A stretch of 41,041 nt of DNA, taken from positions 1 to 41,041 of the forward strand of contig RGZZ01000004.1 in the NCBI GenBank assembly GCA_010028905.1, read 5' to 3'. Of this stretch, positions 17,471 through 20,968 are shown in pieces; the stretch's first letter is position 1; each line of letters begins with the position of its first letter. Source of the stretch: Pseudomonadota bacterium. Its GTDB lineage: Bacteria > Vulcanimicrobiota > Xenobia > RGZZ01. Below the pieces are notes generated by a model. That model ran no database searches and was not told the DNA's origin. It worked only from the letters and a program-made list of their open reading frames with translations. The position numbers were made by a program, and so were the translations under genes.

Positions 17471-18247
17471 CTACTTCGGCGTGGTGCGTGCCGTCCCGGG
17501 CAAGCGCTCGACCGACGCAGGCGTGAGCGGCGCCTGGGGCTCACCTACGTCGCCCACCAGCACCTCGGCCCAGTTCGCAACCTGATCTGCCACCTCGTAC
17601 CAGACGTCTTCCTGCGTTCGACCGCTGCGCTTGAGAATCTTGAACGAGTGGTCGGCGTCATCGATGGTGGACAGCGCAGATCGCCTCACCTTTTTCACGG
17701 CCGCCTGCAGCTGGGGAAGCGGCGCAAGCGCGTCGCGCGTGCCGGAAACGAAGAGCGTGGGCGCAGCGATGCTGGGCAGATGCTTGTCGCGAACCCGATC
17801 CGGTCGCCCGGGCGCGTGCAGGGGATAGGCCAGCAGGATGAGCCCCATCGCCATGTGCGGGTTGCCCGCCACGAGGTGCGATGCCATGCGCCCGCCCATC
17901 GAGCGGCCGCCCATGAGCAGGCGCCCCGGCTTCAGCGTTTCGTGGTTGCGCAGGAAGTCGACCGCGCTGCGCACGGTGGCCTCGAGCAGCGGCTCTCGAT
18001 CCGGGGTCTTGCGCCCCTTCTCTCTGTAGGGAAAGTTGAAGCCCAGTGTGAGAAAGCCACGCCCCACGAGATAGCTCTGCACGTAGGTGAGCAGCGGGTC
18101 ATCGAACCCACCGCCGGCCCCGTGAGCGAGCACGACCGCGCTGGTGTGCCCCGCGCGGAACCCGCGCGGAATCTTCACGATGGCGCTGACCTCATCGACC
18201 ACGGTTCCGCGGTCGATGACAGGGAGGCGGGGGCGCTGGATCTTCAT
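17471..18247 (-). CDS. Alpha/beta hydrolase, Tex30/KANL3-like family
   Basis: 258-residue alpha/beta hydrolase. AHGAGGGFDDP forms the oxyanion-hole region, GGRSMGGR carries the nucleophile serine, SGTRDAL carries the acid and DADHSF the histidine of the triad. The layout matches the small hydrolase group related to Tex30/KANL3 and dienelactone-hydrolase-like proteins; substrates of this group are mostly unknown. No signal peptide, so cytoplasmic. Start ATG 18247 has GGAGG twelve bases upstream, rather distant, and a perfect 12-bp hairpin (18269-18296) ends a few bases before that site. The frame remains open far upstream, but that is a shadow of the phosphofructokinase gene. Confidence 0.88.
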   Translation of the reverse strand: MKIQRPRLPVIDRGTVVDEVSAIVKIPRGFRAGHTSAVVLAHGAGGGFDDPLLTYVQSYLVGRGFLTLGFNFPYREKGRKTPDREPLLEATVRSAVDFLRNHETLKPGRLLMGGRSMGGRMASHLVAGNPHMAMGLILLAYPLHAPGRPDRVRDKHLPSIAAPTLFVSGTRDALAPLPQLQAAVKKVRRSALSTIDDADHSFKILKRSGRTQEDVWYEVADQVANWAEVLVGDVGEPQAPLTPASVERLPGTARTTPK

Positions 18248-18268
18248 GGCGCACTGATTCCTCCGCGC

Positions 18269-18296
18269 ACCCGCTGATCCTTCCGGATCAGCGGGT
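18269..18296. repeat. Perfect 12-bp hairpin upstream of the alpha/beta hydrolase ribosome site
   Basis: ACCCGCTGATCC (18269-18280) and its exact complement (18285-18296) flank a four-base loop. On the minus strand the stem ends four bases before the GGAGG of the hydrolase gene. On the plus strand it is followed by GTTTTC 13 bases later, a poor terminator tract. It could be a leader structure, an operator or a transcription barrier between divergent genes. Confidence 0.7.
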
Positions 18297-18502
18297 CGGA
18301 ACGCACCGTTTTCAGACGCCGACGCGCGTGCCGGGACACGCTGATGACGGGCCCGCGCGGAAGGAGAGCGGCGCGCCCGTTCGAATCCTTGGCCGACTGC
18401 ACAGGCCGGCATCGCATCGACGAGACCGACCTCTCGGCCTCGACCTCGCGCGAAGCCGGTATGCGACACGCGGTCACGAGCACCAAGGAGGCAGCAACAC
18501 AC

Positions 18503-20968
18503 ATGCGCATGGGCATTCTGGTCGGGGGTGGCCCGGCCCCCGGCATCAACGGCGTCATCAGCGCCGCCACCATCGAGGCGATCAATCGCGGCTTCGAGGT
18601 CGCGGGCATCTACGACGGCTTCCAGTGGCTGATGAAGGGCGACACCTCCCACGTCTCTCCGCTGGGCATCCGCGACGTCTCGCGCATCCACTTCAGCGGC
18701 GGGTCGATTCTGCGCACCTCCCGGGCCAATCCCACCCGCGACCCAAAGGCCCTCGAGACCGTGGTGAAGTCGCTCACCGATCTCGGCATCACGCACCTGG
18801 TCACCATCGGCGGCGATGATACGGCCTTCAGCTCGCGCCGGGTGCTCGAGACGAGCGAAGGGCGCATCCGCGTTGCCCACGTGCCGAAGACCATCGACAA
18901 CGATCTGCCCCTCGACGGCGGCTACTCGACGTTCGGATTCCAGACCGCCCGCCACGTGGGAACCCGCACGGTCGAGGCCATCATGACCGACGCCCAGACC
19001 ACGAGCCGCTGGTACTTCCTCGTCGCCATGGGCCGAAACGCCGGCCATCTCGCGCTGGGCATCGGCGTCTCGGCGGGCGCCACGCTGAGCCTCATCCCCG
19101 AAGAGTTCAGCCAGCGCCCGGTGAGCTTCGACCACCTCTGCGCCATCATCGAGGGCTCCATCATCAAGCGCCTGGCCATGGGGCGCTCTGACGGCTGCTG
19201 CATCCTCGCAGAGGGGCTGGCCGAGATTCTCGACCCCGCGTCGCTGCCCGAGATCGAGGGGGCCGAGCGCGACGAGCACGGGCATCTCCGGCTAGCGGAG
19301 ATCCGCCTGGGCGAGCTGGTGAAGGAGCGGGTGCGCGCCCGCCTCAAGGCGCGGGGCATCGCGCTCACCATCGTCGACAAGGACATCGGCTACGAGCTGC
19401 GCTGCGCGGCCCCCATCCCGTTCGATCAAGAGTACACCCGAGAGCTCGGGTACGGCGTTGTGAAGTTCCTCGCCGGCGGCGGCAGCGGTGCCATGATCAC
19501 GCGCCAGGGCGACCGCCTGGTTCCCGTGGCCTTCAGCGACATCATGGACCCCACCACCGGTCGCACCCGCATCCGCTATGTCGACACCCGCGCCGAGGTC
19601 TTCGAGGTGGCCCGCCACTACATGATACGCCTCGGACCCGCTGACCTCGAGACCCCGGCCACCCTCGAATCGCTTGCCGAAGCCGCGCGCATGACGCCGG
19701 AGGATTTCCGTAAAGAGTTCGAATCGGTGGCGCGCGACGCGCAGGCGTGGATGCAATCGCTGCCGCCCGATCGCCGTCGCGCCCTCGAGGCGCGCCATCT
19801 GCACGATGACGCGTCGATCGCGCAGAGCGGCCTCGAGGCGGTTCACGCGGCTGACGCAGTGAAGGATGTCGCCACCTTCGGCGCGCACACGGCCTCGAAG
19901 CACGAAGGGGTGGCGGGTGCCGCGGCTGAGCTGGTCACCCTGGGCTCTTATGGTCTCACGCGCGACGCGGGCCTCGATCTGGGGCGGGCGAGCGCGTACG
20001 CCGAGCAGGGTGAGCGCCTCCGGCGCGCTGGAGCCGCCGTCGACGCGGGCACATTTGACGCCGAGGCCCGGCGCCTGGGCGTGAGCGGTGGGGTGAAGCT
20101 CGGGCTGGGTGCAGTCAATCTGGCTGTGCTCAAGGGCGCGGGCACGCGCGCTGCCGAAGGCGCCGCATCACGTGGGTCTGCCGCATCGGTCGCCGCGGCA
20201 GACGGCGCGGGTGCGCAGGGCATCTTCAACACCGCGATAGTGATGGCGCAGCGGCAGCTCGCCCTGCGCTCGATCCCGTGGGTGGTGCACGAGAACCCGG
20301 GGTACCGCATGTTCACGCGCGGAACGATGTCTGACCTCCTGCGGGAGTCAGAGGCGCTGGGCACGCACTTCAGTCAATTCGAGGGAGCCGCAGGGGTCCC
20401 CGTAACGGTGACCGTTCACGGGAATGCGTCACAGGCGGAGCTGGCCGTTCTGGGGAAGGCCATCAACGCGGCGCCGCCCGCGGCCCGCGCGCACATGCGC
20501 GAGATCCACCTCTCTCGCGAGCTGGGGTTCGGTGAGCGCGCCGACGGGCAGCTCACCACGGTGCAGGGGTTGAGTGATGGCAAGCACATCGTCATCAACC
20601 GCGACGTGCTTCTCGAGGCATCAGAGCGCGATCGCAGCCTTCTCTACCACGAAGCCGGTCACGTGCTCGACGCGGGGGGTCGACATTCGTCTCGAGGACC
20701 CTGGGGCAGAGGGGCGTCGGTGACACGGTATGGCGCCACCAATGCGGCCGAAGACTTTGCGGAGACCCATGCGAAGGTCTTGCTCGAGCACCAGCGGCTC
20801 AAAGACCTGAAGTGGTATCAGTGGCTCGTGGAAGATCACGCCGCCAAGAAGGCCGAGATCCTGCGGTTGTACGGCATCGATACCAAGGCCCCGCAGGCCC
20901 GCGACCTCGTGATTCCCGCCATGGTGACCGCCGCGGGGATCGCCTGGTACGGTGGAGGCGAGCCGTGA
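18503..20968 (+). CDS. PPi-type 6-phosphofructokinase fused to a zinc-metallopeptidase-like domain
   Basis: 821 residues in one uninterrupted frame. Residues 1 to about 405 are a phosphofructokinase: GGGPAPGINGV near the N-terminus, GGDDT (103-107), PKTIDND (128-134) and MGRNAGHLAL. Asp106 in place of Gly and Lys129 in place of Gly are the residues known to mark pyrophosphate-dependent enzymes. Next come about 150 Ala/Gly-rich helical residues (410-570) with no recognised domain. Residues about 575-800 resemble a gluzincin: HEAGH at 716-720 after a SLLY strand, then YGATNAAEDFAETHA with Glu750 or Glu754 as likely third ligand. The start is ATG 18503, with AAGGAGG eleven bases before; the frame is open to 18344. 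The fusion is unusual; the role of the second half is unknown. Confidence 0.88.
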   Translation: MRMGILVGGGPAPGINGVISAATIEAINRGFEVAGIYDGFQWLMKGDTSHVSPLGIRDVSRIHFSGGSILRTSRANPTRDPKALETVVKSLTDLGITHLVTIGGDDTAFSSRRVLETSEGRIRVAHVPKTIDNDLPLDGGYSTFGFQTARHVGTRTVEAIMTDAQTTSRWYFLVAMGRNAGHLALGIGVSAGATLSLIPEEFSQRPVSFDHLCAIIEGSIIKRLAMGRSDGCCILAEGLAEILDPASLPEIEGAERDEHGHLRLAEIRLGELVKERVRARLKARGIALTIVDKDIGYELRCAAPIPFDQEYTRELGYGVVKFLAGGGSGAMITRQGDRLVPVAFSDIMDPTTGRTRIRYVDTRAEVFEVARHYMIRLGPADLETPATLESLAEAARMTPEDFRKEFESVARDAQAWMQSLPPDRRRALEARHLHDDASIAQSGLEAVHAADAVKDVATFGAHTASKHEGVAGAAAELVTLGSYGLTRDAGLDLGRASAYAEQGERLRRAGAAVDAGTFDAEARRLGVSGGVKLGLGAVNLAVLKGAGTRAAEGAASRGSAASVAAADGAGAQGIFNTAIVMAQRQLALRSIPWVVHENPGYRMFTRGTMSDLLRESEALGTHFSQFEGAAGVPVTVTVHGNASQAELAVLGKAINAAPPAARAHMREIHLSRELGFGERADGQLTTVQGLSDGKHIVINRDVLLEASERDRSLLYHEAGHVLDAGGRHSSRGPWGRGASVTRYGATNAAEDFAETHAKVLLEHQRLKDLKWYQWLVEDHAAKKAEILRLYGIDTKAPQARDLVIPAMVTAAGIAWYGGGEP

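What the first reader, a model, noticed from the sequence alone, without database searches (positions are those of the whole stretch)
18503..20968. PPi-type phosphofructokinase fused in one frame to a zinc-peptidase-like domain
The sequence shows an intact phosphofructokinase (GGDDT, PKTIDND) running without a stop into a ~410-residue C-terminal region with HEAGH and YGATNAAEDFAE. Known phosphofructokinases do not carry peptidase domains, and this zincin pattern is better known from secreted or toxin-like proteins. A glycolytic enzyme joined to a protease suggests either processing of the kinase, a moonlighting regulator, or a recent gene fusion. The middle 150 residues are Ala/Gly-rich and could be a linker.
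Basis: partly seen in the sequence, partly recalled or inferred. Interest (0 to 1): 0.85.

Follow-up and report, generated by a model that had tools for sequence, protein, structure and literature searches.

The report
Sugar enzyme fused to metalloprotease domain
One uncultured bacterium carries a complete pyrophosphate-using glycolytic enzyme whose gene runs on in frame into a zinc-protease-like domain, a one-off join not seen in its relatives, which appears real but still needs confirming with sequencing reads and enzyme tests.

Summary
Window 18503-20968 (+) is one uninterrupted 821-codon frame with a good ribosome-binding site. Residues 3-407 are a complete Thermotogales-type pyrophosphate phosphofructokinase (612 bits, cut-off 550). 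Residues 413-588 are an Ala-rich, helix-predicted stretch with no known relative. Residues 589-800 are a confidently folded zincin (pLDDT 88.6). Sequence profile and fold search place its catalytic core (HEAGH, Y743, E750) closest to M34-type gluzincins (Pro-Pro endopeptidases, lethal-factor catalytic core). No Pfam or NCBIfam model claims the domain. It belongs to a family that is multi-copy (up to 9 per genome) with shuffled architectures in this class.

The fusion was seen nowhere else. Other class members have the enzyme, when present, as a free gene of about 410-430 residues, and zincin genes elsewhere. In the closest relative (75% identical) the enzyme has its own stop. Coding signal runs through the join, the join is not a repeat, and both flanks belong to the same lineage. 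An interspecies chimera is unlikely, but a consensus error or intragenomic misjoin cannot be excluded without reads.

Best reading: a recent, lineage-specific fusion of a working PPi-PFK and a probably active zincin. What the tether does is unknown.

The parts
18485..18491 (+). Shine-Dalgarno-like AAGGAGG, 11 bases before the ATG
   Evidence: read directly
18503..19738 (+). complete PPi-dependent phosphofructokinase, residues 1-412; GGDDT 103-107, PKTIDND 128-134
   Evidence: NCBIfam NF041103 612 bits vs cut-off 550; Pfam PF00365 E 2.9e-51; 75% identical to the free PFK of G002/L004
19739..20266 (+). Ala-rich helical stretch between the two domains, residues 413-588
   Evidence: no convincing homologue; helices at pLDDT about 40-60 over most of its length; codon-position signal continuous; P(no stop by chance) about 0.6%
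20267..20902 (+). zincin (gluzincin, M34-like core) domain, residues 589-800
   Evidence: family alignment of 26; profile hits on M34 catalytic cores in PDB, E 4.8e-7 to 0.005; AlphaFold2 pLDDT 88.6, pTM 0.84; fold search led by gluzincins
20648..20662 (+). HEAGH zinc-binding and catalytic motif, residues 716-720
20729..20764 (+). YGATNAAEDFAE, residues 743-754: Y743 and, seven residues on, E750 as predicted third zinc ligand; E754 also invariant
   Evidence: aligned to Y and E of M34 cores; E750, D751, A753 and E754 invariant and Y743 nearly invariant
20903..20968 (+). C-terminal tail, residues 801-821, hydrophobic, low confidence, then stop TGA

Best explanation
This is a genuine, recent, lineage-specific gene fusion. 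A complete PPi-dependent phosphofructokinase has been joined, at its natural C-terminus, to a protein made of an Ala-rich helical region plus a zincin domain. Shown: one open frame, intact motifs in both halves, PFK homology ending about where relatives stop, and no such join in relatives. Inferred: the PFK half still interconverts fructose 6-phosphate and fructose 1,6-bisphosphate with PPi in the cytosol and, by assembling as PFKs do, carries several copies of a probably active zinc endopeptidase (H716, H720 and E750 hold the zinc; E717 is the catalytic base; Y743 stabilises the transition state). What the tether achieves is not known. The zincin family here combines with many unrelated regions, so I favour incidental capture, at most localising the protease, over evolved regulation of glycolysis.
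For: ORF and start site. PFK equivalog score above cut-off and all conserved PFK positions kept. Zincin family alignment, M34-core profile hits, confident fold and gluzincin fold neighbours. PFK homology ends at residue 410-413, where relatives stop after a few more residues. Synonymous GC3 falls from 0.90 (PFK) to 0.80 (rest), 0 of 500 shuffles reaching the observed break; linker and zincin resemble each other in codon usage, as two formerly separate genes would give. The junction DNA is single-copy. Left-flank genes (56-73% identity) and right-flank genes (55-66%) both match family members G001/G002 best, and tetranucleotide content shows no special break at the join.
Against: It is a single genome, a 942-contig assembly, with no reads and no second assembly. 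The fusion is absent from every relative searched. The linker has no homologue, so that part rests on coding statistics only. The GC3 break maps to about residue 375, slightly inside the PFK, and is not precise. No activity data for either half.
Confidence: 0.7

Rival explanations
1. Sequencing or assembly artefact. In the organism the PFK ends near codon 415 and the zincin gene is separate, either directly downstream with a stop lost by a consensus error, or elsewhere and joined by misassembly.
For: Only one fragmented assembly; free PFK in all relatives. Compositional change near the join. Codon 416 is TGG followed directly by ATG (19748-19753), so one base separates the frame from a stop followed by a start, though this is weak, since any Trp codon is one base from a stop.
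Against: Junction DNA is not repeated in the genome. Coding signature is uninterrupted. No ribosome-binding site precedes any in-frame start after codon 390. Both flanks come from the same lineage. A random misjoin would keep strand and frame in at most one case in six.
Confidence: 0.2
2. The zincin is a processing or regulatory module for this PFK: it cuts itself off or cuts the PFK, controlling PPi-PFK activity or oligomeric state.
For: Covalent attachment through a poorly ordered helical region that could be cut; intact catalytic residues.
Against: No relative keeps the arrangement, so there is no sign of selection for it; free PFKs in relatives have only short variable tails; the same zincin family occurs with many unrelated regions.
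Confidence: 0.05
3. The protein is an exported effector or polymorphic-toxin-like protein in which the PFK is only a carrier N-terminus.
For: ALF-like metallopeptidase domains occur mainly in PVC-type (eCIS) delivered toxins (PMC3482391); family members have variable N-termini and several end in glycine-zipper-like tails.
Against: No eCIS sheath and no eCIS core gene detected in this genome. The N-terminus is the PFK's own, with no signal peptide; the PFK is intact and conserved as a cytosolic enzyme. Immediate neighbours are ordinary transporters and hydrolases.
Confidence: 0.05

Closest known systems
PPi-dependent 6-phosphofructokinase, NCBIfam NF041103 (Thermotogales type)
   Same: Whole length of the model, score above the equivalog cut-off, GGDDT and PKTIDND motifs
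   Different: Here followed in frame by 409 further residues; relatives examined end at about 405-430
M34-type gluzincins: Pro-Pro endopeptidases (PPEP/Zmp1) and the lethal-factor catalytic domain (Pfam ATLF PF07737)
   Same: HExxH, a downstream Tyr and, seven residues later, the Glu; family-profile match E 4.8e-7 (lethal-factor core) and 0.004-0.005 (PPEPs); top fold neighbours
   Different: The window's own domain hits no ATLF model; only 4 of 26 family members do, weakly; most of the domain N-terminal to the core is not aligned; attached to a cytosolic enzyme without signal peptide
Peptidase_Mx (PF15887) / TIGR04549 zinc metallohydrolase lipoproteins
   Same: Weak matches over the catalytic core in 15 (Pfam) and 9 (NCBIfam) of 26 family members
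   Different: Below curated cut-offs in the full proteins tested; no lipoprotein signal here
eCIS_core (PVC-metallopeptidase, PF13699)
   Same: HExxH stretch, weak 16-bit match
   Different: Below the 22-bit cut-off; lacks the HExxHxxQ signature; no eCIS gene detected in this genome

Membership tests
PPi-dependent phosphofructokinase (NF041103) | Score above equivalog cut-off over the whole model | tested here: met
   612.4 bits vs 550, model positions 1-406 of 407
PPi-dependent phosphofructokinase (NF041103) | Aspartate at the donor site (GGDDT) and the PKTIDND catalytic motif | tested here: met
   residues 103-107 and 128-134; invariant in relatives; role of the Asp per PMC5931981
PPi-dependent phosphofructokinase (NF041103) | PPi-dependent activity | not testable with these tools
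   needs enzyme assay
Gluzincin, M34-like (ATLF/PPEP) | HExxH plus downstream Glu zinc ligand and Tyr in the M34 spacing (Y, then E seven residues on) | tested here: met
   H716, H720, Y743, E750; aligned with M34 cores
Gluzincin, M34-like (ATLF/PPEP) | Zincin/gluzincin fold | tested here: inconclusive
   pLDDT 88.6 model; top PDB neighbours are M34 and M1 gluzincins, best prob 0.97, but E 0.05 and TM (query) only about 0.3
Gluzincin, M34-like (ATLF/PPEP) | Match to Pfam ATLF PF07737 above its cut-off | tested here: not met
   no hit for the window domain; 4 of 26 members hit, best E 1.3e-4. So: works like an M34 core, not filed as a member
Gluzincin, M34-like (ATLF/PPEP) | Zinc-dependent peptidase activity | not testable with these tools
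   needs purified protein
eCIS core / PVC-metallopeptidase | PF13699 over cut-off, HExxHxxQ, eCIS genes in genome | tested here: not met
   16.1 of 22 bits; no eCIS_core and no sheath gene in G000
Polymorphic toxin | Trafficking N-terminus, toxin C-terminus, adjacent immunity gene | tested here: inconclusive
   N-terminus is a PFK; next gene 21060-21545 matches no Pfam family

The most novel reading that the evidence does not exclude
A natural metabolic-enzyme/protease hybrid in which a PPi-PFK oligomer displays a zinc endopeptidase, so that glycolytic flux or PPi state gates proteolysis (or the reverse): a new way to couple central metabolism to proteolysis.
Probability: 0.05. Interest if true: 0.85.

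Novelty: new variant of a known kind. Interest (0 to 1): 0.4.

Why it matters
No PFK carrying a peptidase domain turned up in the genomes searched, so the join, if confirmed, is a new domain combination and a test case for how a housekeeping enzyme tolerates a large appended enzyme. Perhaps more useful is the zincin family it exposes: multi-copy, architecture-shuffling proteins with an M34-like catalytic core, unmodelled in Pfam and NCBIfam, in an uncultured lineage (nearest named record labelled Armatimonadetes).

Tried and rejected
Interspecies chimera: flanking genes on both sides match the same family best, so judged unlikely. Junction inside a repeat: no repeat found. Linker as readthrough of intergenic DNA: codon signal and stop statistics argue against it. 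Linker homologues: only marginal, low-complexity-like hits. Zincin as eCIS core or delivery through eCIS: rejected. Zincin relatives on plasmids, in phages and in viral contigs: none. Pre-fusion zincin gene next to the syntenic FtsX or hydrolase genes of relatives: not found. Full-length alignment A3 for a whole-protein fold was discarded because zincin rows spread across the PFK. The viral fold search gave one match at E 1e-4 (an intein-domain phage protein, rmsd 17.6), judged an artefact of the low-confidence helices. Papers: none held all of the terms phosphofructokinase, gene fusion and metalloprotease domain.

Full report
Observation. The frame 18503-20968 (+) is real and uninterrupted: 821 residues, start ATG 18503 with AAGGAGG 11 bases upstream. 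The longer start at 18344 has no comparable support. The window is the whole of contig C4 of a 5.69-Mb, 942-contig genome assembly.

N-terminal part. Residues 3-407 match the PPi-PFK equivalog NF041103 at 612 bits, cut-off 550, and PF00365. GGDDT and PKTIDND are present; the donor-site aspartate is thought to hinder ATP binding in PPi-PFKs (PMC5931981). Alignment with free PFKs shows the invariant positions kept. The genome has a second, distant PFK on C303 (about 28% identity, 398 residues, GGDDT and PKTMDND).

C-terminal part. Residues 589-821 fold confidently on their own (pLDDT 88.6, pTM 0.84), with HEAGH in one helix and E750 in another, as in gluzincins. Single-sequence searches of Pfam, NCBIfam and PDB gave nothing above cut-off. 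A profile of 26 homologues found M34-type cores in PDB: lethal-factor catalytic domain E 4.8e-7, a substrate-import-associated metallohydrolase lipoprotein 4e-5, Pro-Pro endopeptidases 0.004-0.005, with HExxH, Tyr and Glu in register. Fold search ranks the same M34 core first (prob 0.97) and M1 aminopeptidases next, but with E about 0.05 and TM about 0.3 of the query, so this is a shared catalytic core, not a close relative. The zinc and catalytic roles of H716, E717, H720, Y743 and E750 follow from established knowledge of M34 enzymes and are not tested here. One PPEP-like protein with an intact HEXXH and an extra N-terminal domain showed no detectable activity (PMC11460543), so an intact motif is not proof of activity.

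The zincin family. In 149 genomes of the phylum, 47 have a match at E 1e-6 or better; the strong matches lie mostly in the larger-genome families, with 1 to 9 copies per genome. Members differ in length and in what surrounds the domain: Pro/Ser-rich N-termini, repeats of some 25 residues on both sides, or glycine-zipper-like C-terminal tails. Ten full proteins match no Pfam family above cut-off. ALF-like metallopeptidase domains are known mainly from eCIS-delivered toxins (PMC3482391), but this genome has neither a sheath nor an eCIS core gene at the thresholds used.

Is the fusion unique? In all 17 other genomes of the class the PFK and zincin hits fall on different contigs, and PFK frames end at about 410-430 residues. 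The closest PFK, 75% identical, in G002 (the same contig as L004, an 'Armatimonadetes' MAG record), has its own stop soon after the homologous end. A pattern scan of 85,000 genome assemblies returned only free PFKs matching query residues up to 423; that scan relies on six short peptide patterns and would miss diverged fusions.

Is it an artefact? Against: continuous codon signal, single-copy junction, flanking genes on both sides most similar to the same family, no tetranucleotide break at the join, no internal ribosome-binding site. For: one fragmented assembly, no reads, a drop in synonymous GC3 near the join (0 of 500 shuffles), and a Trp codon followed by ATG at 19748-19753. The GC3 of the C-terminal part (0.80) lies within the range of window genes (0.74-0.91), so it need not be foreign. 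A compositional shift is also what a true fusion of two genes would show, so it does not discriminate.

Synteny. Left-flank genes (two ABC permeases, PaaA/PaaC-like, hydrolase) are together in G002:C23, with the hydrolase inverted, and right-flank genes (FtsX, ABC ATPase) are together in G002:C12 and G001:C236; neither block has a PFK or zincin beside it in the stretches read. The fused gene therefore sits at a rearranged point between two conserved blocks.

Mechanism. The most economical account is a stop loss or deletion that joined two genes after a rearrangement had put them in line, leaving both enzymes structurally whole. I expect PFK activity to persist and the zincin to be active or a passenger. 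Regulation of one by the other has no comparative support.

Noticed in passing
G008, G016, G010, G003, G017, G013, G019 and others; e.g. L066:3905-4540, L075, L053: An unmodelled, multi-copy M34-like zincin family in this class and parts of the phylum, with shuffled N- and C-terminal regions and often glycine-zipper-like C-terminal tails.
   Followed up: partly
L047:667-2946 (G016:C6): A 759-residue zincin protein flanked on both sides by many degenerate repeats of about 25 residues with the pattern DGGxxWxE; a second zincin gene lies about 2 kb away on the other strand.
   Followed up: no
L004:2785-3477 (-): Next to the free PFK of the closest relative lies another, apparently unrelated HEAGH protein (VVAHEAGHATPVRAIDG), transcribed away from it.
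   Followed up: no
G000:C303:3241-4326 (L088): A second PFK in the window's genome, about 28% identical, also with GGDDT and PKTMDND, so probably also PPi-type.
   Followed up: partly
17471-19285 (-) in the window: A 604-codon frame antisense to the PFK: its C-terminal part (17474-18250) is a real alpha/beta hydrolase gene, the rest a spurious GC-rich extension.
   Followed up: yes
G016:C35:10162-12715: Two contractile-sheath-like proteins (PF04984) in one class member only; possible phage tail or contractile injection system.
   Followed up: no
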